Shown piece by piece: positions 42,640 through 56,101 of a stretch of DNA of 64,000 bases; the stretch's first letter is position 1; the number at the start of each line of letters is the position of its first letter. The position numbers were made by a program, and so were the translations under genes. This stretch comes from Rhizobium sp. N324. Its GTDB lineage: Bacteria > Pseudomonadota > Alphaproteobacteria > Rhizobiales > Rhizobiaceae. The notes under the pieces were generated by a model. That model saw only the letters and a list, made by a program, of their open reading frames with translations. It was not told the origin of the DNA and made no database searches. The DNA is taken from contig NZ_CP013633.1 of the NCBI RefSeq assembly GCF_001664485.1, positions 372,001 to 436,000 on the forward strand, in the 5' to 3' direction.

Positions 42640-43245
42640 TTGCGCCTCCCGAATTCACCAACGAGATCGGCACCTTGTTGCCGATCGCACCATGAGGTCT
42701 TTCCTCATTGTACAACAGGGCGACGGAACACCCACGGGACCGAGGTTCGCGAGCTTTTATATCCGTGGCATCCCTGGTCTGGGCGGCTTATCCATATCCA
42801 TGGATTGGTGGACAAGGGGTCTGCTGTGTTCCGCTGCAGCCTTTCGGGTTCGACGTCATGTCGGTTGCTTGAGGTCCCGGTGTGGATGTTTGACCGAACA
42901 CTGAGTGCGCGGTGGTTGGCCTTACCAATTGCGTATGCCGATTTAGCTTGCCTGCTTGCTTTGGCAAAGTTGCTGGAAGAGGCAGGCACTCCCTCACAGG
43001 GCGCGGATATGAGCGCAGCATTGATCTCTCACGAAACGAGTCGGGGAGATGTCCATGCCACGCCAGTTTACGACATATCAGTTCGATCTGTTCTCGAGTG
43101 CCCACAGCGGGAAGACGCCAGCGATGCCGCAATGGCAGACGTTGCCGGAAGGAACACAACAGGCGTTGACGGCGCTCATCGTGCGGCTGCTCGTCGACCA
43201 CTCAAACGGCGAGAGCGCCTCCCAGTCGAAGGAGGCCAATCATGA
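42640..43245 (+). CDS. DUF5372-like accessory protein, copy B
   Basis: Same 201-codon frame as copy A, no coding differences seen. Confidence 0.6.
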
Positions 43246-43252
43246 TGCATGA
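43049..43252 (+). CDS. Small middle ORF of recombinase element, copy B
   Basis: Same 67 codons as in copy A, overlapping the recombinase start. Confidence 0.6.
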
Positions 43253-45305
43253 GAAGATCAGCGCCCACCATCTTGAACGCAAGGCCATTCTGTACGTCCG
43301 ACAATCGTCGGCTCATCAGGTTCTGCACAATCGCGAAAGTAGCGCGCTTCAATACGCCATGCGCGACCGCTTGAAAGCACTTGGCTGGGCGCAGATCGAA
43401 ACAGTCGATGAAGATCTAGGCCGTTCGGCCGCCGGAGGCGTAACCCGCGCCGGTTTCGACCGGATGGTTGCCGAGGTCTGCCTTGGAAAGGTTGGAGCGG
43501 TTGCAGCACGAGAGGTATCGCGCTTTGCCCGCAACAGCCGGGATTGGCAACAGCTCATTGAGATGTGCCGCGTCGTCGACACCGTTCTGATCGACCAGGA
43601 AGCGGTCTATGCACCGCGCCAGGGTAATGACCGCCTGCTTTTGGGGCTGAAGGGTAGCCTCAACGAGTATGAGCTGGATCTCTTGCGCCAACGCTCCCTT
43701 TCCGCCCGCTATGAGAAGGCGCGCCGCGGTGAGCTTGTCGTTACTGTCCCGATTGGATTCTTGAAGGCCGGCGACAGGATCGAGAAGGATCCCGACCGGC
43801 GCATCCAGGAGGCCATTGCGCTCGTCTTCAACAAGGTTGCCGAACTCGGCAGTGCCAGGCAGGCGCTACTATGGTTCCTCGAGCAAGGCCTGGACCTGCC
43901 GGTCAGGCGCGCCAACGGCGAGGTCACCTGGCGCAGGCCCAATTACGCAACCATCCATCGGATGATTGATAATCCGATCTACGGAGGCGCGTATGCTTAT
44001 GGTAAGAGTCGCTCCATGCCGGGATACGATGGCCGATCCGGAATTCGCCGCAAGGCGCGCGCTGAATGGCTGGCCTTGATCCCGGATGCCCACGAAGGCT
44101 ACGTCAGTTGGGAACGGGCGGAGGAGATCCGCAAAATGGTCAGCAATAATGTGCCTGCCAGCCGACATCACGGGGCGCCGAAGCATGGCGACGCTCTGCT
44201 TGCCGGCCTTTTCCGTTGTAAGAGGTGCGGGCGGAAGCTGACGGTCCGCTACACTGGAAACAATCATAACATTCCGCGCTATTCCTGCTGGCGTGGCCTG
44301 CTCGACAACGGTGAGCCTCGCTGCATCGCCTTCGGTGGCCTGCGGGTCGACGATGCGATCGAGGAGATGCTTCTTGGCGTCGTTGAACCAGGAGCCATTG
44401 CTGCTAGCGCTGAAGCAGAACGCAACATAGCCAACCGTCGTGATCAAGTTCACGACGCCCTTCAGCGAGATCTCGAGGCGGCGAGCTTTGCGGCCGACCG
44501 GGCATTCCGGCAATATGACACTGCTGATCCCGAGAACCGGCTGGTGGCATCGGAGCTCGAGGCGCGCTGGAACAAGGCTCTCATTCGCGTTGGCGAGATC
44601 GAGAATAAGATTGCCAGCCACAAAGCCGCGATACCGCAAGTGTCGTCGTATTCCATGTTGGATATAGCTGCTCTTGCCGGGGACCTTCGTGCCGTCTGGT
44701 CGGCGCCAACAACCGATACCAGGCTTAAAAAACGGATCGTGCGCACGGTCATTCATGAAGTGATCGCCGATCTCGACGATGTGGCTTCAGAGATCGTCCT
44801 CGTCATCCATTGGGCTGGTGGAGTTCACACCGAACTGCGACTGCCGAAACGACGTCGTGGACAAAGAAACGCGACCCCCGACGACCTCATTGAGGCAGTA
44901 CGGCAGCTCGTGCTCATTGCCAATGACGACCTTATTGCCGGGATACTCAATCGCAATGGATTGGCCACCGGCAATGGCAATCGCTGGACAAGGGAACGTG
45001 TCACAGCACTCCGGTCGTACCGCAAGATCCCGGTCTACCGGCCGCAGTCAGACGGGATAGAGCCTTGGCTCAACCTGGGAAAGGCGGCGAAGCTACTTGG
45101 CGTTACGCCAAAAACATTGAGAATCGCCGCCGAAACAGGTGAGATCGAGGGCGTGCATCCCTTGCCGGCAGGCCCATGGATCTTTAGTCGCTCAAAGCTT
45201 GAACTCCCGCAAGCAAAACAGCTCGTCGATCGAGTACGACAGAACCCCAGACACCCCGCGGGATCGCCTCAAAATCAAGGAAACCTATTTACTTCAACAA
45301 CATAG
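43242..45305 (+). CDS. Large serine recombinase, copy B
   Basis: 687 residues, identical to copy A at protein level, with catalytic serine region [10 protein letters not shown] and zinc ribbon intact. Confidence 0.9.
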
Positions 45306-45316
45306 AAAGATGGGCG

Positions 45317-46059
45317 TTATGAAACAGGATTGTAGTATCTACGCCAATCCTCCATCTTTTCGCGGGCATCCGCAAGGGTCAGGAACCAATCCTGGTTCAG
45401 GCATTCTGCACGGAAGCGGCCATTGAACGCTTCGATGAAAGCATTATCAGTCGGCTTGCCGGGGCGTGAGAAGTCCAACGTCACACCCTTGGAATAGGCC
45501 CACAGGTCCAAGTCGCGCGACACGAACTCGGTCCCTTGGTCGACACGGATCGTTTTCGGATAGCCGGCTTTTTGGCACACCGTTCAAGGGTTTGCACAAC
45601 GTCTTCGCCTCTATAGCTATGACGCGGATCAAGCACCGGCACGTAGCGCGAGAAGGTGTCGACCACCGTCAGCACGCGCAGTTTCTTACCCGTTGCGAGT
45701 TGGTCGTGAACGAAGTCCATCGCCCAGACGTCGTTGGGTCCGACGGCCATGTGCCGATCCTCGCGAAGCTTGGCCTTTACCCTCCGCTTCGGTGTCTTGT
45801 TCCGCAACGGTAGCCCCAAGTCCCTGTAAATGCGGTAGGTTCGCTTGATGTTGGTGCCCCAACCCTCGCGTTCCAACAGCACATGCACGCGGCGATAGCC
45901 GTACCGCACACGGATCTCGCAGATCTCGCGAATACGACGTTCCAGACCGGCCTGATCAGCGCGGCGAGAGGTATAGTGGTGAGTTGATCGATCGAAGTTC
46001 AACGCTCCACAAGCACGTCGGATCGAGATCGCCCAATCGCAGCACATGCCTTTCACCAT
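45317..46059 (-). pseudogene. IS3 orfB with frameshift and lost 3' end, copy B
   Basis: Same one-base loss (near 45580) and the same truncated end YYNPVS as copy A. Confidence 0.85.
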
Positions 46060-46423: not shown

Positions 46424-47689
46424 GATCAAAGTGCACAAGATGGTGGCGAATGGGAACGTAGGGTCGTCGCCTCGATCGCCAAGAAATTGAAAAGGGGCCA
46501 GCGAGGAGCGCCTTTTGGCTCGCATCGCCGGGTCCGCGATCAAGGCCCTCGACGGAGCGGTGCCGAAATTGCCGAACAGGCGATACTTTCGGCTCTGGTC
46601 CGCAAATACAAGACTGGCGGTTCCTAAGCAGCGAGCCCAGGCGGTGCCACGTTCCTCCTACGGCATTTCATTATCCACGCATGTTGCCGAGGCTGCTGAG
46701 CCTGCTCGAATTCCGGAACAATGCAGCACATCGGGTCCGCCATCGCGGCGCTGGAATGGCTCAAGCGTCTGATCGACGAGGACGACAGACGGATCGACCC
46801 GTATCGATCCGAGACCTGGCTGTAGGCCTGAAGGCCTAGCATCCTGCCGTATTTCACGTTTACCAGGGCGTCGCCTTGCGCTGTGGCGGCAAATAATAGG
46901 CCGTCGCTCGAAGCCGGAGTGCCCATGGATCGGTAACCCCGCCTGCGCCTCGACCACCCTGGCTAGCGCCCGGTCGTAGGCTTCGCTCTCGACATGCCAC
47001 TGTCGAACACGGATTAACACCCACAAGGTGTGGGTGTCTGTGGCATCGGCCATCATGCGCAGGCCAAAGCTAGTCTCTTCTGCGAGGATGACGTTCATCG
47101 CAGGGCGCTCCTGTACGCAGATGACTGAATGCTTCGCAGAAGCCAGTCGCAGCATCCACGTCTGGACGTCGCCTTCGCAATCGAGCCGCCCGGAATCGTA
47201 ACAGCCCGAGCTGGCGCGGCCAAGCTCGCGTAACCGGATGTCGAGGTGAGCTTGAGATTTGCCAGCTATCCTCCTGTCGCAACGGCCCCGCGAGACGATC
47301 GCTGTCGGCCACAGCCTGGGCCGGAACAAGTGCAGGTCTGAGATCGCCATAGCGTCGGGACCCGCCCAAGCATTGCCCAATAGGTGTCTCGTGTTTCTTT
47401 TCGCATCCGGTGGATCTTTTACTTGACACATCCGGCCATAGCATCTGCCAATAGGGACAAGGCCCGCGGCACCAAGCGGCGCATCCGCGCCCACTAACGT
47501 GCGGAGGGCCACTAACAATTCACCAGGTTTCAGAGTGCATCAGCAGCAACAAAAATCGACGGCAAACTCGATGGGGGCTACGCGGATGGGGGCGCGCTTA
47601 CTGAGCGCCGAGTCTCAACTGTACCGTCGCCACCGAACTTTGGAGCTGTCGATCCTGTTCAGGACGTTCATTCAGAACCCTACTCGGTT
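46424..47689. other. 1.27 kb of decayed or unrecognised sequence
   Basis: A 286-codon minus frame (46658-47518) has no family features, signal or ribosome site that I recognise. A plus-strand piece at about 46722-46826 ends like a small gene (IAALEWLKRLIDEDDRRID). Several frames look like broken coding DNA. It separates recombinase element B from the peptide operon. Confidence 0.4.
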
Positions 47690-47705
47690 TGTCGTGCTTG
47701 CGACA
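47690..47705 (+). promoter_or_regulatory. NifA upstream activator site of the peptide operon
   Basis: TGTCGTGCTTGCGACA is an exact TGT-N10-ACA, centred about 109 bp above the promoter (106 bp at nifH). The optional central T is absent. Confidence 0.75.
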
Positions 47706-47798
47706 GCGTGATGTGCGGTTTGGCACGTCTCGGCGCTCTAGGGCAGCCATTGAATAACATACAGAACAGTTTTCTGATGCTTTTCGCTCCTTCTGCAT

Positions 47799-47814
47799 TG
47801 GCACGAATCTTGAA
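47799..47814 (+). promoter_or_regulatory. Sigma-54 promoter of the peptide operon
   Basis: TGGCACGAATCTTGAA has the same TGGCACG-N4-TTGAA form as the nifH promoter at 23999, with the invariant GG and 10-base spacing. It lies 78 bp before the precursor gene, and the region between this promoter and the NifA site is AT-rich. Confidence 0.78.
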
Positions 47815-47892
47815 CCTTTTTGTTGCGCGCCGCTAGGAGCTCCCAACGGGGGCCTTGGCATCTTCTCAATCCAGCTCTGAACGGAGACACCA

Positions 47893-48018
47893 ATGATGAA
47901 CAACATGGCAGCCTATCGTGTAACCGAATTAACCCCTCAAGAAGCAGCTGAAACCTCCGGAGGTTGGTATTTTTGGGTTTACTTGTTTTTGCGACGTTAC
48001 GGACACTTGTTTGGTTGA
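47893..48018 (+). CDS. Double-glycine-leader peptide precursor (41 aa)
   Basis: 41 codons with CGGAGAC 7 bases before the first of two adjacent ATGs. The leader ends ELTPQEAAETSGG, matching the double-glycine leader pattern (acidic, hydrophobic positions, GG at 23-24) cut by C39 peptidases. The predicted core is WYFWVYLFLRRYGHLFG: 17 residues, rich in aromatics, two adjacent arginines, no cysteine. It is 18 bp before an HlyD-type adaptor and a C39-peptidase ABC exporter, its natural partners. It could be a bacteriocin, a signal or a peptide acting on the plant; nothing in the sequence decides. Confidence 0.85.
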   Translation: MMNNMAAYRVTELTPQEAAETSGGWYFWVYLFLRRYGHLFG

Positions 48019-48036
48019 TAAGCGAGCTGGCTCTCG

Positions 48037-49218
48037 ATGGCTCCTAGTGACTACAGACTAGCAGTTCCCCTTTCTGCTGAAACGGCCAGCTGCACCGCAG
48101 AAAGCATACTGGCGCGACGATCAGGACGATCCTTGAGCATTTATAGGGCGATCTTGCTCTTCGTCGCCGCGGCATTTGGCTCACTGCCACTCGTTACCAT
48201 ACCGGTCTCCATGCAGAGTGTCGGTACTATTCGCCCGATCGTGGAGAAGACGCCCCTGATAGCGCCCGTCTCCGGACGCATCTCCCGTGTCCTTGCCTTT
48301 GAGAACGATGTCGTTGCTAAGGGGAAGGAAATAATCGCCTTTGACGATCATGTAATCGAGGAAAAGCTCAGCGGGGTTTTAGCCGACATTCATGCCAAGA
48401 GCGATCTTGCCCATGACTTCCAAACGCTCATTTCTTCCGGCGCAAGGCTCAGCGTCTCGCCCCCCCTCCAAACCGAATCCGCGACGGCTGAAAGGGTGCA
48501 TTTTCTCAACTTGCTGCGCGAGAACCAAAATGCGCGCAGTAACGCCGCGGCGGAACTCGACCGCGCAAAGCGACTTGTCTCGGCTGCTGCGGCGCCGGCG
48601 AAGACCGTTGACGAGAAGGCTTTCGCTCTCCAAAATATCGAGGTCCAAGGCGAGATCCTCGTGCGACGCAAAACCGCTGATTGGAACCAGAAGCTCCTTG
48701 ATGCTAACCTGCGCTTAAAGGAACTCACGGCCACCTTGCATCAGCTCGAGCACGAACGGGACCTGCACCGCATCCGCGCCCCAGTATCGGGTGCTCTCGA
48801 GCAGTTCTCCGGCCTCGCGCACGGAAGCTACGTGCAGAGCGGGCAAACCGTTGGTTGGATCTCGCCGAACGACGATCTGGTGGCGGAAATCTACGTCTCC
48901 CCCAACGACATTGGCTTTGTGCAGCCTGGTCAGCCGGTGCGGCTCCAAGTGGATGCCTTTAACTACAACCAATGGGGTGTCATCAAAGCAAGGGTGGTCG
49001 AGGTGGCGCAGGACTTCACTCTGCATGACGGGAACCCGGTCTTCAAGGTCCAGTGCGCGCTCTCTCGCAGCGAACTCGCGCTGAAAAGCGGGGCCATCGG
49101 CCACCTGAAGAAAGGCATGACCGTGCGGGCTCGCTTTCTGTTGGCCAATCGCACTCTCCTGCAACTGCTCTACGACGAGGCAGACGATTGGCTCAACCCG
49201 ATGCTGGCGGGGCGCTAA
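48037..49218 (+). CDS. HlyD-family membrane fusion protein
   Basis: 393 residues. One N-terminal membrane helix (IYRAILLFVAAAFGSLPLVTIPV, residues about 35-57) is followed by a lipoyl half (PLIAPVSGRISRVLAFENDVVAKGKEI), a coiled-coil hairpin (residues about 115-245), the second lipoyl half (HRIRAPVSGALEQFSGLAHGSYVQSGQTV) and a beta-barrel domain. It links the ABC exporter to the outer membrane channel. The start has only a weak ribosome site, so it probably depends on translation of the peptide gene 18 bp upstream. It is 27 bp before the transporter. Confidence 0.9.
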   Translation: MAPSDYRLAVPLSAETASCTAESILARRSGRSLSIYRAILLFVAAAFGSLPLVTIPVSMQSVGTIRPIVEKTPLIAPVSGRISRVLAFENDVVAKGKEIIAFDDHVIEEKLSGVLADIHAKSDLAHDFQTLISSGARLSVSPPLQTESATAERVHFLNLLRENQNARSNAAAELDRAKRLVSAAAAPAKTVDEKAFALQNIEVQGEILVRRKTADWNQKLLDANLRLKELTATLHQLEHERDLHRIRAPVSGALEQFSGLAHGSYVQSGQTVGWISPNDDLVAEIYVSPNDIGFVQPGQPVRLQVDAFNYNQWGVIKARVVEVAQDFTLHDGNPVFKVQCALSRSELALKSGAIGHLKKGMTVRARFLLANRTLLQLLYDEADDWLNPMLAGR

Positions 49219-49245
49219 TATTGTCCCAACAGCCAGCGAGCCTCC

Positions 49246-51393
49246 ATGTCGAGTAAGGCCATTAAGTTCAAACAGCGTGACATCACGGATTGCGGCGCCG
49301 CCAGCCTCGCATCTGTCGCAGCCTTCTATGGCTACAAGTTGCCATTGGCGCGCATCCGCCAGTATGCGTCGACCGACCGCTCCGGTACGAGTGTGCTGGG
49401 GCTCACGGAAGCGGCGCAGAAGCTGGGCTTCATCGCGAAAGGCGTCAAAGGTGGCTTCGACAGCCTGTACAAGATCCCCAAGCCCGCTATCGCGCACGTC
49501 GTCAAGGAGGACCTGCACCATTTCGTAGTGGTCCATGCGATCGACGCCAAGTGGGTCATCGTCATGGACCCGGCCTTGGGCGAAATCTGCAAAGTGCCGC
49601 ATCAGGAATTCATGGAGCAATGGACCGGCGTTCTGGTTTTGCTGGTTCCGGCAGACACATTCAATCGTCGAGACGAGACCACGTCGCCCCTCGCCCGATT
49701 CGCCCGCCTACTCGCGCCACACCGCACGGTGATGGCGCAGGCTCTCGTCGGCGCTCTTGTGACGACCGTCCTCAGTCTCTCGACGGCGATCTACGTTCAG
49801 AAGATCGTTGATCACGTGATCCCAGCGGGAAACCGCAACCTGCTCAACTTGATGAGCATCGCAATGCTGCTGATCCTAGCGATACAGATCCTGATCAACC
49901 TCCTAAGAGGCCGACTCGTCCTGCAGACGGGGCAGAAGATCGACGTATGCTTGATCCTCGGTTATTACAATCACATCCTGGCCCTGCCCCAGAAGTTCTT
50001 CGATAGCATGCGCATGGGAGAAATCGTGTCGCGCATGAACGACGCTGTGAAAATCAGGAGCTTCCTGAACGACGTTTCGATAAACATGTTTGTTGACATT
50101 TTAATGATACTGTTCTCGTTCGGAATGATGTTCATCTATTCCTGGAATATTGCTTTGATCGTGGCGCTCGCCATTCCAATGTACATCCTGGTATATTGGG
50201 CCATCAATCGGATGAATCGAAATCTCCAACGAGTCATCATGGAAAATGACGCCAAACTCGAGGCGCAACTGGTAGAATCACTCGGAGCTGTCTCCACCAT
50301 TAAGACTTCCGGCGTCGAGAGCTTCGCAAACTTCAAAATGGAGACCCGCTTCGTAAAGATGCTGCATTCCGTCTACAGCTCCGGGCTGATCTCAATCTGC
50401 GGCGACAACGCCTCGGCGTTGCTGTCGGTCCTGTTCACCATCGTGCTGATGTGGTTTGGAACCACGCTTGCGCTCGAACAGGCCGTCACGCCCGGCGAAT
50501 TGCTGTCCTGCTATACGTTGCTTGGCTATATCACCCGGCCGGTCGCCCGCCTGATCCAGACCAACCGGATCGTTCAAGACGCGTTTATCGCGGCGGATAG
50601 ACTTTTCGAGATCTTTGAACTGGAGTCGGCAAGCAGCAGCGGCATCGATGCTACGAAGACCGATCTCGGAGATATTCGCCTGGAGAACGTCACATTCCGC
50701 TATGGCGCGCAGGCGGAGGTTTTCAGCGATCTAAGCGTCTCCTTTCGCCAAGGAGAGTTGACGGCCGTCGTGGGTGAGAGCGGCTCGGGCAAAAGCACCC
50801 TTGCGGCTCTGCTGCAGAATGTCTACCAGCTTGAGGATGGATGCATTCGGATCGGCCAATATGCCCTCCAGGATTTCTCGAGCGCATCACTGCACAAGGT
50901 CATGGCTGCAGTACCGCAATCGATAGACGTCTTCTCCGGTTCCGTGATCGAGAACATCGCCCTGGGCGAGTTCGAACCGGAGTTCGATAAGATCGTACGC
51001 ATCTGTGATCGAATAGGACTGCGGGAGTGCATCGAGCGCTGGCCCGGGCGGTTCCAGGCCCATCTGGGCGAGAACGGGGTTCGCCTCTCCGGAGGTGAGA
51101 AGCAGCGCCTCGCATTGGCTCGGGCCCTGTACCGGGATCCCGACGTTCTAATCCTTGACGAAGCGACCTCCTCTCTGGACTCAGCAGCCGAAGAATTTGT
51201 GCTGCGGGTTGTTGAGGATCTGTCTCGCGCTGGGAAGACCATCATAGTCATCACTCATCGGTTGAGCACCGTTCGTGGGGCGGACAATATTGTGGTCCTG
51301 GACAAGGGGCGGGTCATTGAGGAGGGAAAGCACGCTGACCTAGTGAGAACTGATGGCCCTTACGCTCGATTATGGCGGGCGCCAAGGTCGTGA
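49246..51393 (+). CDS. Peptidase-containing ABC exporter (C39 domain)
   Basis: 715 residues. The N-terminal C39 peptidase has oxyanion Gln10, catalytic Cys16 (DITDCGAASLAS), His92 (HHFVVVHAID) and Asp108 (VIVMDPALG), all intact, so it should cleave after Gly-Gly. Six membrane helices follow (residues about 160-440). The ATPase has Walker A GESGSGKSTLAAL, signature LSGGEKQRLALARAL, Walker B VLILDEATSSLD and the H-loop VITHRLS. It both matures and exports the peptide. No outer membrane TolC gene is present in the window. Confidence 0.93.
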   Translation: MSSKAIKFKQRDITDCGAASLASVAAFYGYKLPLARIRQYASTDRSGTSVLGLTEAAQKLGFIAKGVKGGFDSLYKIPKPAIAHVVKEDLHHFVVVHAIDAKWVIVMDPALGEICKVPHQEFMEQWTGVLVLLVPADTFNRRDETTSPLARFARLLAPHRTVMAQALVGALVTTVLSLSTAIYVQKIVDHVIPAGNRNLLNLMSIAMLLILAIQILINLLRGRLVLQTGQKIDVCLILGYYNHILALPQKFFDSMRMGEIVSRMNDAVKIRSFLNDVSINMFVDILMILFSFGMMFIYSWNIALIVALAIPMYILVYWAINRMNRNLQRVIMENDAKLEAQLVESLGAVSTIKTSGVESFANFKMETRFVKMLHSVYSSGLISICGDNASALLSVLFTIVLMWFGTTLALEQAVTPGELLSCYTLLGYITRPVARLIQTNRIVQDAFIAADRLFEIFELESASSSGIDATKTDLGDIRLENVTFRYGAQAEVFSDLSVSFRQGELTAVVGESGSGKSTLAALLQNVYQLEDGCIRIGQYALQDFSSASLHKVMAAVPQSIDVFSGSVIENIALGEFEPEFDKIVRICDRIGLRECIERWPGRFQAHLGENGVRLSGGEKQRLALARALYRDPDVLILDEATSSLDSAAEEFVLRVVEDLSRAGKTIIVITHRLSTVRGADNIVVLDKGRVIEEGKHADLVRTDGPYARLWRAPRS

Positions 51394-51502
51394 TCCGTGT
51401 AGGCCCTGTCGGCTCGAGGATTGAAAACGGTTGTGAACGTCACGGTTAAGCAGCATGGCAACATTGTCGGCTGTGAACTTGAAGCGGCGGTGATCGGAAC
51501 GT

Positions 51503-51911
51503 GGGCGATGGACTTCGTTCACGACCAACTCGCAACGGGTAAGAAACTGCGCGTGCTGACGGTGGTCGACACCTTCTCGCGCTACGTGCCGGTGCTTGAT
51601 CCGCGTCATAGCTATAGAGGCGAAGACGTTGTGCAAACCCTTGAACGGTGTGCCAAAAAGCCGGCTATCCGAAAACGATCCGTGTCGACCAAGGGACCGA
51701 GTTCGTGTCGCGCGACTTGGACCTGTGGGCCTATTCCAAGGGTGTGACGTTGGACTTCTCACGCCCCGGCAAGCCGACTGATAATGCTTTCATCGAAGCG
51801 TTCAATGGCCGCTTCCGTGCAGAATGCCTGAACCAGGATTGGTTCCTGACCCTTGCGGATGCCCGCGAAAAGATGGAGGATTGGCGTAGATACTACAATC
51901 CTGTTTCATAA
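51503..51911 (+). pseudogene. IS3 orfB 3' fragment fused to recombinase element C
   Basis: It begins abruptly at WAMDFVHDQLATGK, carries the same one-base loss near 51648 and ends YYNPVS at the element edge. The orfA and first half of orfB are missing, so copy C was shortened at this end. It begins 110 bp after the transporter stop. Confidence 0.85.
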
Positions 51912-51922
51912 CGCCCATCTTT

Positions 51923-53986
51923 CTATGTTGTTGAAGTAAATAGGTTTCCTTGATTTTGAGGCGATCCCGCGGGGTGTCTGGGGTTCTGTCGTACTCGATC
52001 GACGAGCTGTTTTGCTTGCGGGAGTTCAAGCTTTGAGCGACTAAAGATCCATGGGCCTGCCGGCAAGGGATGCACGCCCTCGATCTCACCTGTTTCGGCG
52101 GCGATTCTCAATGTTTTTGGCGTAACGCCAAGTAGCTTCGCCGCCTTTCCCAGGTTGAGCCAAGGCTCTATCCCGTCTGACTGCGGCCGGTAGACCGGGA
52201 TCTTGCGGTACGACCGGAGTGCTGTGACACGTTCCCTTGTCCAGCGATTGCCATTGCCGGTGGCCAATCCATTGCGATTGAGTATCCCGGCAATAAGGTC
52301 GTCATTGGCAATGAGCACGAGCTGCCGTACTGCCTCAATGAGGTCGTCGGGGGTCGCGTTTCTTTGTCCACGACGTCGTTTCGGCAGTCGCAGTTCGGTG
52401 TGAACTCCACCAGCCCAATGGATGACGAGGACGATCTCTGAAGCCACATCGTCGAGATCGGCGATCACTTCATGAATGACCGTGCGCACGATCCGTTTTT
52501 TAAGCCTGGTATCGGTTGTTGGCGCCGACCAGACGGCACGAAGGTCCCCGGCAAGAGCAGCTATATCCAACATGGAATACGACGACACTTGCGGTATCGC
52601 GGCTTTGTGGCTGGCAATCTTATTCTCGATCTCGCCAACGCGAATGAGAGCCTTGTTCCAGCGCGCCTCGAGCTCCGATGCCACCAGCCGGTTCTCGGGA
52701 TCAGCAGTGTCATATTGCCGGAATGCCCGGTCGGCCGCAAAGCTCGCCGCCTCGAGATCTCGCTGAAGGGCGTCGTGAACTTGATCACGACGGTTGGCTA
52801 TGTTGCGTTCTGCTTCAGCGCTAGCAGCAATGGCTCCTGGTTCAACGACGCCAAGAAGCATCTCCTCGATCGCATCGTCGACCCGCAGGCCACCGAAGGC
52901 GATGCAGCGAGGCTCACCGTTGTCGAGCAGGCCACGCCAGCAGGAATAGCGCGGAATGTTATGATTGTTTCCAGTGTAGCGGACCGTCAGCTTCCGCCCG
53001 CACCTCTTACAACGGAAAAGGCCGGCAAGCAGAGCGTCGCCATGCTTCGGCGCCCCGTGATGTCGGCTGGCAGGCACATTATTGCTGACCATTTTGCGGA
53101 TCTCCTCCGCCCGTTCCCAACTGACGTAGCCTTCGTGGGCATCCGGGATCAAGGCCAGCCATTCAGCGCGCGCCTTGCGGCGAATTCCGGATCGGCCATC
53201 GTATCCCGGCATGGAGCGACTCTTACCATAAGCATACGCGCCTCCGTAGATCGGATTATCAATCATCCGATGGATGGTTGCGTAATTGGGCCTGCGCCAG
53301 GTGACCTCGCCGTTGGCGCGCCTGACCGGCAGGTCCAGGCCTTGCTCGAGGAACCATAGTAGCGCCTGCCTGGCACTGCCGAGTTCGGCAACCTTGTTGA
53401 AGACGAGCGCAATGGCCTCCTGGATGCGCCGGTCGGGATCCTTCTCGATCCTGTCGCCGGCCTTCAAGAATCCAATCGGGACAGTAACGACAAGCTCACC
53501 GCGGCGCGCCTTCTCATAGCGGGCGGAAAGGGAGCGTTGGCGCAAGAGATCCAGCTCATACTCGTTGAGGCTACCCTTCAGCCCCAAAAGCAGGCGGTCA
53601 TTACCCTGGCGCGGTGCATAGACCGCTTCCTGGTCGATCAGAACGGTGTCGACGACGCGGCACATCTCAATGAGCTGTTGCCAATCCCGGCTGTTGCGGG
53701 CAAAGCGCGATACCTCTCGTGCTGCAACCGCTCCAACCTTTCCAAGGCAGACCTCGGCAACCATCCGGTCGAAACCGGCGCGGGTTACGCCTCCGGCGGC
53801 CGAACGGCCTAGATCTTCATCGACTGTTTCGATCTGCGCCCAGCCAAGTGCTTTCAAGCGGTCGCGCATGGCGTATTGAAGCGCGCTACTTTCGCGATTG
53901 TGCAGAACCTGATGAGCCGACGATTGTCGGACGTACAGAATGGCCTTGCGTTCAAGATGGTGGGCGCTGATCTTCTCATGCATCAT
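51923..53986 (-). CDS. Large serine recombinase, copy C
   Basis: 687 residues, identical to copies A and B. Confidence 0.9.
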
Positions 53987-54179
53987 GATTGGCCTCCTTC
54001 GACTGGGAGGCGCTCTCGCCGTTTGAGTGGTCGACGAGCAGCCGCACGATGAGCGCCGTCAACGCCTGTTGTGTTCCTTCCGGCAACGTCTGCCATTGCG
54101 GCATCGCTGGCGTCTTCCCGCTGTGGGCACTCGAGAACAGATCGAACTGATATGTCGTAAACTGGCGTGGCATGGACAT
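53976..54179 (-). CDS. Small middle ORF of recombinase element, copy C
   Basis: Same 67 codons as in copies A and B. Confidence 0.6.
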
Positions 54180-54588
54180 CTCCCCGACTCGTTTCGTGAG
54201 AGATCAATGCTGCGCTCATATCCGCGCCCTGTGAGGGAGTGCCTGCCTCTTCCAGCAACTTTGCCAAAGCAAGCAGGCAAGCTAAATCGGCATACGCAAT
54301 TGGTAAGGCCAACCACCGCGCACTCAGTGTTCGGTCAAACATCCACACCGGGACCTCAAGCAACCGACATGACGTCGAACCCGAAAGGCTGCAGCGGAAC
54401 ACAGCAGACCCCTTGTCCACCAATCCATGGATATGGATAAGCCGCCCAGACCAGGGATGCCACGGATATAAAAGCTCGCGAACCTCGGTCCCGTGGGTGT
54501 TCCGTCGCCCTGTTGTACAATGAGGAAAGACCTCATGGTGCGATCGGCAACAAGGTGCCGATCTCGTTGGTGAATTCGGGAGGCGCAA
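53983..54588 (-). CDS. DUF5372-like accessory protein, copy C
   Basis: Same 201-codon frame as in copies A and B. Confidence 0.6.
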
Positions 54589-55544: not shown

Positions 55545-55899
55545 CAGATGGGACCTGTGGCGACGCAACTTGGCCCGGACGAATGACATGGCCCCTCGAA
55601 ACGGGGCGGCCGCAACAACAACGGCAAGCGGCGGGCAACGCTGGCGGGCTTGACGAAAAGCGCTTCACAAGCGAGATTCCCGTCGCGATAGTCCAGTGGC
55701 GGTAGGTTTCGCCGCGAACTCCACCCTCAAGCAACCTATTCGCCGCCAGGTGTAAAACCGTGTCTCGGGCTTTCGAATTGAGGATCAGGCGGGGGGTGGA
55801 ATCAGCTTTTCGAGGTCGACAAGGGCAGTGAGAGTATCTTGAGAGGCCGTGTACTTGCCGATACCCCCTTTTCCGTGCGAACTGATGCAGACCTGCCAT
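55545..55899 (-). pseudogene. nifH: nifH 5' remnant
   Basis: From the ATG at 55899 the frames read HGKGGIGKYTASQDTLTALV then DLEK and, after a shift, [23 protein letters not shown]. These match NifH residues about 10-65, with the P-loop Ser changed to Tyr, an inserted Pro and an internal deletion. The rest of nifH and all of nifDK are gone. Confidence 0.85.
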
Positions 55900-55983
55900 G
55901 TATTTTCCCTTCAAGGTTCAAATCGACTTCGACCGGACGCCACACGTTCCACCAGGCGATTGCCCGCCGCGTAGTTCTGGGAG

Positions 55984-55999
55984 TTCAAGACTCATGCCA
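55984..55999 (-). promoter_or_regulatory. Sigma-54 promoter retained above the nifH remnant
   Basis: TGGCATGAGTCTTGAA, the same form as the nifH promoter (one change in the -24 box), 85 bp before the remnant start. Confidence 0.78.
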
Positions 56000-56085
56000 G
56001 TCTCCTCCGCTGAGGTCCGGAACACGGCATCTGTATTGTTTCCAGCTTCTTAGCTAGCCCATGAAGAATTGATCGAGGACAACGT

Positions 56086-56101
56086 TGTCGTGAACCGGAC
56101 A
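56086..56101 (-). promoter_or_regulatory. NifA site retained above the nifH remnant
   Basis: Minus strand TGTCCGGTTCACGACA fits TGT-N4-T-N5-ACA, centred about 102 bp above the promoter. Confidence 0.75.

What the first reader, a model, noticed from the sequence alone, without database searches (positions are those of the whole stretch)
47690..51393. NifA/sigma-54-controlled double-glycine peptide and C39 exporter operon
Seen: a 41-codon precursor with a GG leader (core WYFWVYLFLRRYGHLFG), an HlyD-type adaptor and an ABC exporter with an intact C39 Cys-His-Asp triad, 18 and 27 bp apart. Upstream are TGGCACG-N4-TTGAA and TGT-N10-ACA at nearly the same spacing as at the local nifH. Known: C39 exporters cut double-glycine leaders and export the core. 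Inference: bacteroids or micro-oxic cells export a small aromatic peptide in step with nitrogen fixation, either against competing bacteria or toward the host. I know of no described peptide of this sequence. The precursor is easily missed by annotation.
Basis: partly seen in the sequence, partly recalled or inferred. Interest (0 to 1): 0.95.

Follow-up and report, generated by a model that had tools for sequence, protein, structure and literature searches.

The report
Nitrogen-fixation-timed rhizobial peptide export operon
A plasmid of a bean-nodule type of Rhizobium carries a three-gene set behind the same kind of DNA switch as its nitrogen-fixation genes; it is predicted to make, trim and export a short peptide, and relatives with the same leader but very different end pieces occur in four other genera of nodule bacteria, so these bacteria likely release peptide weapons (or, less likely, signals) while they fix nitrogen.

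Summary
Window 47690-51393 holds a NifA-type site and a sigma-54 element, a 41-codon double-glycine precursor, an HlyD adaptor and a C39-ABC exporter. In the whole 7.0 Mb genome the exact combined promoter pattern occurs five times, all on the nif-bearing contig C4; the reversed pattern gives none. It is not a one-off: precursors with the same leader lie in 36 of 36 exporter-positive handles tested, in five rhizobial genera. A sigma-54 element lies within 165 bp of 57 of 92 precursor records against 5 of 345 control ORFs; 34 of 55 promoters carry an exact TGT-N10-ACA above it (0.7 expected). Leaders are conserved, cores hypervariable; most cores resemble two-peptide, GxxxG, class IIb-type bacteriocins. 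The bean-symbiont version is derived: the first precursor is gone and the second core has 17 instead of 30 residues. Transcription, cleavage, export and target are untested. Most likely a NifA-timed, bacteriocin-like peptide system; a host-directed role, or decay in this lineage, is not excluded. Ten paper searches and passages of 14 papers showed no description, but the R. etli NifA-regulon paper was not held.

The parts
47690..47705 (+). NifA-type upstream activator site TGT-N10-ACA
   Evidence: 93 bp above the -24 element as against 90 bp at nifH; part of the genome-wide pattern
47799..47813 (+). sigma-54 -24/-12 element TGGCACGAATCTTGA (same TTGA variant as the local nifH)
   Evidence: conserved above orthologous precursors
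47883..47886 (+). GGAG ribosome-binding-type sequence before the precursor
   Evidence: sequence itself; similar purine-rich stretches before most relatives
47893..47964 (+). leader of the precursor, 24 codons, ends in Gly-Gly
   Evidence: M1, G23, G24 invariant in 27 aligned members
47965..48018 (+). core of the precursor, 17 codons plus stop (predicted exported peptide)
   Evidence: homologous in its 3' end to the 30-residue peptide B core of relatives
48037..49218 (+). HlyD-type periplasmic adaptor
   Evidence: start supported
49246..51393 (+). C39 peptidase-containing ABC exporter (triad C16, H92, D108)

Best explanation
This is an operon behind a NifA/sigma-54-type promoter that encodes a 41-residue double-glycine precursor, an HlyD-type adaptor and a C39 peptidase-ABC exporter, and it is predicted to trim and export a 17-residue peptide when the nitrogen-fixation genes are on, likely as a bacteriocin-like, membrane-active agent against competing bacteria. 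Shown: the genes, the promoter architecture, the catalytic residues, and a family in five rhizobial genera with a conserved leader and hypervariable cores, often with several precursors per exporter. Inferred: NifA and RpoN switch the operon on at low oxygen in nodules; the C39 domain cuts after Gly24; a chromosomal TolC-type channel completes the export path; the relatives' GxxxG-type cores insert into bacterial membranes, as two-peptide pairs where two precursors stand in tandem. In the bean-symbiont lineage the locus is reduced: peptide A is gone and the peptide B core is shorter.
For: Promoter: (five sites genome-wide; the other four lie at two nifH copies, a P450 gene and a nifH remnant beside the NifX-associated gene), and across relatives. 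Machinery: PCAT1 4ry2 E 2.3e-145 and ComA, triad, purifying selection on the exporter, dN/dS 0.14-0.17 in three comparisons. Family: precursors in 36 of 36 exporter-positive handles. Link to nif: 29 of 29 exporter-positive Rhizobium genomes have nifH (21) or, where nifH was missed in drafts, nifA (8); 18 of 19 exporter-positive Mesorhizobium and Sinorhizobium genomes have nifH. Bacteriocin-like: 56 of 76 cores TM-like, 55 of these with [GA]xxx[GA]; tandem pairs 33-39 bp apart; one precursor passes NCBI's class IIb model; leaders 64% but cores 30% identical (shuffled 25%).
Against: No conserved immunity-like ORF near the operon in 32 loci. The R. etli core itself is not TM-like by my measure and matches no family model. 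Only 1 of 10 precursors scanned passes the class IIb cut-off. Two R. leguminosarum plasmid precursors lack the sigma-54 element, as does another on the second of these plasmids. 36 of 57 nifH-positive Rhizobium genomes lack the exporter, so it is accessory. nif genes were not tested on the Bradyrhizobium plasmids. Nodule transcriptome papers whose passages I saw do not mention the operon; their tables were not open to me. No expression, cleavage or killing data.
Confidence: 0.5

Rival explanations
1. Host-directed peptide: bacteroids export the peptides into the symbiosome to act on plant membranes or plant signalling, a bacterial counterpart of plant nodule peptides.
For: Control by the nitrogen-fixation regulator; no immunity-like gene found nearby; exporter clade at 68% identity or more is rhizobial wherever hits are named; hypervariable cores beside conserved leaders.
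Against: Most cores look like class IIb bacteriocins; closely similar core types recur in strains of different genera; 36 of 57 nifH-positive Rhizobium genomes do without the exporter.
Confidence: 0.2
2. Decaying locus in this lineage: the two-peptide system works elsewhere, but in bean-symbiont Rhizobium the loss of peptide A and shortening of core B left an inactive remnant on a young, widely spread plasmid.
For:: peptide A gene absent, core B 39 nt shorter, R. altiplani A gene internally deleted; the R. etli core fits neither core class; R. sp. NXC14 keeps both precursors and HlyD but shows no exporter gene beside them.
Against: The short form is an open 41-residue frame in 38 of 38 plasmid records that hold it; exporter dN/dS 0.14 within the lineage and intact triad; promoter elements intact. 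In IE4803 4 of 17 core residues differ and 0 of 24 leader residues, while the exporter differs at 19 of 2145 bases, which looks like change focused on the core rather than random decay.
Confidence: 0.2
3. Peptide signal between cells: the exported core is a pheromone sensed by the producer's own kind.
For: The exporter also resembles ComA, which exports a pheromone precursor (8hf7, 1.4e-125); short core in R. etli.
Against: No conserved receptor or kinase gene among ORF families shared by the loci; several different cores per strain behind one leader fit an arsenal better than one signal.
Confidence: 0.07
4. Chance: a short ORF and a promoter-like match with no joint meaning.
For: The activator site alone is at chance level in the window.
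Confidence: 0.01

Closest known systems
PCAT/ComA-type C39 peptidase-containing ABC exporters with double-glycine substrates (PCAT1, PDB 4ry2; ComA, 8hf7)
   Same: Domain order, catalytic triad, adjacent GG precursor.
   Different: Works with an HlyD adaptor, as expected in a Gram-negative; NifA/sigma-54-type promoter; rhizobial clade with its own leader.
Class IIb two-peptide bacteriocins (NCBI TIGR03949, lactobin A/cerein 7B)
   Same: GG leader, about 30-residue hydrophobic cores with GxxxG-type motifs, tandem pairs in relatives.
   Different: No immunity-like gene found; 1 of 10 precursors scanned passes the model; the R. etli form is single and 17 residues long.
Caulobacter CdzC/D glycine-zipper contact-dependent bacteriocin (PMC5380434, passages seen)
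   Same: Alphaproteobacterial two-protein, glycine-zipper, type I-exported system.
   Different: Cdz proteins are 84-86 aa, induced in stationary phase, with immunity protein CdzI; here precursors are mostly 41-63 aa, NifA-type promoter, no immunity gene found.
Known rhizobial bacteriocins: trifolitoxin, RTX-like rhizobiocins, 'small' (an acyl-homoserine lactone) (PMC8416774 and PMC6927923, passages)
   Same: Rhizobial competition factors.
   Different: Different chemistry; none of the passages seen links them to NifA control or to double-glycine processing.
Known NifA-RpoN regulon of alphaproteobacteria (PMC4999443 and PMC3538637, passages)
   Same: Promoter architecture; P450 and nif targets share it.
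   Different: No HlyD, bacteriocin or peptidase target is mentioned in the main text (term counts 0 in PMC4999443; bacteriocin and peptidase 0 in PMC3538637). Salazar 2010 on R. etli (78 genes, as cited in PMC11387232) was not held.

Membership tests
C39 peptidase-containing ABC exporter (PCAT) | C39 peptidase, transmembrane and ATPase domains in one chain | tested here: met
C39 peptidase-containing ABC exporter (PCAT) | catalytic Cys-His-Asp | tested here: met
C39 peptidase-containing ABC exporter (PCAT) | cognate double-glycine precursor beside it | tested here: met
C39 peptidase-containing ABC exporter (PCAT) | cleavage after Gly-Gly and export | not testable with these tools
   needs biochemistry
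NifA-sigma-54 regulon | -24/-12 element | tested here: met
NifA-sigma-54 regulon | TGT-N10-ACA about 90 bp above it | tested here: met
NifA-sigma-54 regulon | NifA- and RpoN-dependent transcription | not testable with these tools
   no expression data reached; supplementary tables not open
Class IIb bacteriocin | match to TIGR03949 above cut-off | tested here: not met
   window precursor: no family. Relatives: 1 of 10 scanned passes, 25.6 vs 21.5 bits; 8 of 27 match at E up to 10
Class IIb bacteriocin | two complementary peptides | tested here: not met
   one precursor in the window's genome; tandem pairs 33-39 bp apart in 10 fetched loci of Sinorhizobium, Mesorhizobium and Rhizobium
Class IIb bacteriocin / Cdz | immunity gene next to the peptide genes | tested here: not met
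   no ORF family of 40 aa or more shared by at least 4 of 32 loci other than precursor, HlyD, exporter, their shadow frames, mobile-element, nod/nif or regulator pieces; an unlinked gene is not excluded
Class IIb bacteriocin / Cdz | killing of bacteria | not testable with these tools
   needs experiment
Class II microcin (microcin V type) | closer kinship to CvaB/CvaA-type exporters than to others | not tested
   not compared

The most novel reading that the evidence does not exclude
Symbiotic rhizobia of at least five genera deploy a nitrogen-fixation-timed peptide arsenal: a dedicated exporter and up to seven precursors per genome with a shared leader and fast-changing cores, behind NifA/sigma-54 promoters even where a precursor lies far from the exporter, released inside nodules by bacteroids to police rival bacteria or to act on the host, without a dedicated immunity gene. 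It would be a bacterial mirror image of the plant's nodule peptides.
Probability: 0.4. Interest if true: 0.9.

Novelty: new variant of a known kind. Interest (0 to 1): 0.78.

Why it matters
NifA regulons are usually read as nitrogenase assembly, electron supply and micro-oxic adaptation. A conserved peptide-export branch would tie competition or host dialogue to the moment of nitrogen fixation, and would give a testable genetic basis for nodule competitiveness, an old applied problem. The family is poorly visible to standard tools: a BAGEL4 survey of Mesorhizobium integrative elements reported no bacteriocins (PMC8627217, passages), and precursors here are often unannotated or called hypothetical. 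The shared leader gives a simple handle for finding and testing them.

Tried and rejected
Chance ORF or promoter: rejected. The activator site alone was not significant in the window, so I did not rest on it.

RefSeq's shorter HlyD start (48133): I first accepted it (notes), then rejected it because the extension is conserved and the IE4803 record uses the longer form.

Simple frameshift origin of the aromatic core: undecided. The 3' end of core B is homologous to the 30-residue form, but the middle aligns poorly (shuffles reached the score in 13 and 5 of 500), and WFFW- or WWFW-starting cores in Mesorhizobium are an alternative source.

Order-wide survey (397 genomes): 4 hits each, the same four genomes, all of the window's genus. 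The first look passed on at most 16 and 2 candidates per genome, and the kinds of genome are not told, so it says little. Searches scored 7 candidates per genome, so their counts could be low.

Precursor search with the single sequence found 2 proteins; the alignment found 27 (7987 candidates scored, capped), those with names all rhizobial.

Immunity gene: sought, not found. A 7-locus ORF family just below the exporter looks like the exporter's own out-of-frame end and matches no Pfam family.

Papers: ten searches, passages of 14 papers and one short section of one. None that I saw describes these peptides or an HlyD/C39 operon under NifA control. [quoted passage not shown] a micro-oxia-induced HlyD adaptor blr7872 (PMC6515984, passage), kinship not tested. 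Salazar 2010 and the paper looked up by DOI 10.1186/gb-2003-4-6-r36 were not held, so a mention in a regulon list is possible.

Rows dropped before counts: one search left out 11 loci named in its script, matches with under 120 bp above them, and duplicates of protein plus promoter; its 92 records are not independent and include degenerate or start-less hits and second genes of operons. The 345 control ORFs are mechanical ORFs of at least 150 codons (stop counted) from the same loci, not proven genes. One search kept 76 of 86 proteins. The 36 handles include the plasmid of M. huakuii 583 twice, and 12 of them hold members of the alignment used as query.
Full report
1. What is there. The exporter has C39, transmembrane and ATPase domains; its best solved match by sequence is PCAT1 (4ry2, E 2.3e-145), then ComA. 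C16, H92 and D108 are in 42 of 42 aligned exporter ORFs (the window's own counted twice, Cys partly by the script's filter). The adaptor is HlyD-like. The precursor matches no Pfam or NCBIfam model.

2. Where it lies. The window is base 372001-436000 of contig C4 of a 7.0 Mb, six-contig genome. The operon is 99.8-99.9% identical in the 20 best of 67 plasmid records, among them R. etli CFN42 p42d, where the precursor is RefSeq WP_004676277.1, a hypothetical protein. In one search, 38 of 60 plasmid records carry the 41-residue form at 90-100% identity; 33 of these 38 list Phaseolus vulgaris as host or source.

3. The promoter. The exact pattern TGT-N10-ACA, 75-105 bp, TGGCAYG-N4-TTG occurs five times in the whole genome, all on C4, against none for the reversed pattern. 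Two sites belong to nifH copies. One lies above a cytochrome P450 gene (Pfam p450 1.8e-12); NifA control of a P450 (cpx) is stated in PMC4999443 (passages). One lies above a nifH remnant and the NifX-associated gene at window 55.0-56.1 kb. The fifth is this operon. The pattern was drawn up after seeing the window's sites.

4. A family, not a single gene. From the fetched loci I collected 92 precursor records (86 distinct proteins) in Rhizobium, Sinorhizobium/Ensifer, Mesorhizobium, Bradyrhizobium and Microvirga. The leader consensus is MKxDMSAYGVTELTPxEASATSGG; M1, G23 and G24 are invariant in 27 aligned members. In 36 of 36 genomes or plasmid records that hold the exporter there are 1 to 7 precursor matches (one plasmid is in twice); several lie far from any exporter. 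In the alignment-based protein search all hits with names are rhizobial (27 hits, some unnamed). The exporter behaves likewise: among the best 120 of 7409 hits, every named one at 68% identity or more is rhizobial; then come Bradyrhizobium sp. 83012 (60%) and, at 57-58%, named deltaproteobacterial-type sequences. On plasmids, 76 of 81 records with the exporter are of rhizobial genera; the other 5 are Bacteroidota at 50-55% in the four rows shown.

5. The promoter travels with the precursors. At least 10 of 11 sigma-54 bases lie within 165 bp of 57 of 92 precursor records (at least 9: 72 of 92), against 5 of 345 control ORFs (at least 9: 16). Of 55 distinct promoters with a score of at least 9, 34 have an exact TGT-N10-ACA 50-130 bp above, where shuffles give 0.7. 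An earlier control: 2.8% of 3000 random 420-bp stretches of these loci reach 10. Some of the remaining records are second genes of a tandem pair, whose promoter lies further up. Exceptions: two R. leguminosarum plasmid loci without the element (L042, L043) and a further precursor on the second plasmid (L148).

6. Link to nitrogen fixation. In the genus Rhizobium 29 of 148 genomes have the exporter and 57 of 148 have nifH. Of the 29, 21 have nifH; the other 8, all drafts of 60 or more contigs, each have a full nifA. nifA was not tested in the exporter-negative genomes. 36 nifH-positive genomes lack the exporter, so it is an accessory trait of symbiotic strains. Mesorhizobium: 12 of 146; genus of Ensifer aridi: 7 of 33; 18 of these 19 have nifH. 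nif genes were not tested on the Bradyrhizobium and Microvirga plasmids.

7. What the peptides look like. Leaders share 64% mean pairwise identity, cores 30%, where shuffled cores give 25%. Of 76 kept, 56 cores are TM-like and 55 of those hold a [GA]xxx[GA] motif; 13 are Pro- or Cys-rich; 7, among them R. etli's, fit neither. In 10 fetched loci of Sinorhizobium, Mesorhizobium and Rhizobium two such precursors stand 33-39 bp apart, a two-peptide layout. One of 10 precursors scanned, the second one of S. fredii NXT3, passes the NCBI class IIb model, which explains the RefSeq name there.

8. What happened in the window's lineage. Aligned with R. sp. NXC14, R. altiplani and S. americanum, the R. 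etli locus lacks the first precursor, and core B is 39 nt shorter with a homologous stop codon. R. altiplani has an internally deleted first precursor. Variants of the short form exist: LYFW-, -VYVFL- and, in IE4803, WMLAVYVFLRRYGHLFG with an unchanged leader, while the IE4803 exporter differs at only 19 of 2145 bases. The exporter is under purifying selection (dN/dS 0.14-0.17 in three comparisons).

9. How it most likely works. NifA and sigma-54 turn the operon on at low oxygen (inferred from the promoter). The precursor is cut after Gly24 by the C39 domain and pumped out with the HlyD adaptor and a chromosomal TolC-type channel (inferred; general knowledge of C39 exporters). In relatives the products likely act as membrane-active, bacteriocin-like peptides. 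The absence of an immunity-like gene near 32 loci is the main point against a textbook bacteriocin and the main opening for a host-directed role.

10. Against known systems. It is a PCAT-type exporter with its substrate. It works like class IIb or Cdz systems (PMC5380434, passages) but is not filed with them, because model match, two-peptide layout and immunity gene were tested and not met for the window's own locus. The novelty lies in the NifA-type promoter, the rhizobia-wide leader and the core diversity.

Noticed in passing
window 43001-45726 and 51502-54227: A perfect inverted repeat of at least 2726 bp (serine recombinase and transposase pieces) flanks the operon; the stretch searched began at 43001, so it may be longer. 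CFN42 has the recombinase only on the upstream side in the stretch shown.
   Followed up: partly
window 46866-47464: About 600 bp just above the operon is inverted relative to R. etli CFN42.
   Followed up: no
window about 55811-56101, minus strand: A complete NifA/sigma-54-type promoter stands above a short nifH 5' remnant (77% over 94 bp) and then the NifX-associated gene.
   Followed up: partly
L032 9478-10305, L033 9474-10301: A calcium-binding protein gene follows the exporter in S. fredii NXT3 and S. americanum; from memory this recalls the secreted protein calsymin of R. etli, not tested.
   Followed up: no
L125 8873-13138: A Bradyrhizobium japonicum plasmid holds three successive precursor copies with the same leader, the first two with altered core ends, each followed by an IS3-type element.
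   Followed up: no
L131 3110 onward: In one Mesorhizobium genome an orphan precursor leader reads on in one open frame into an HlyD-like sequence.
   Followed up: no
L127 (Rhizobium sp. NXC14): Both tandem precursors and HlyD are present but no exporter gene is annotated beside them.
   Followed up: partly
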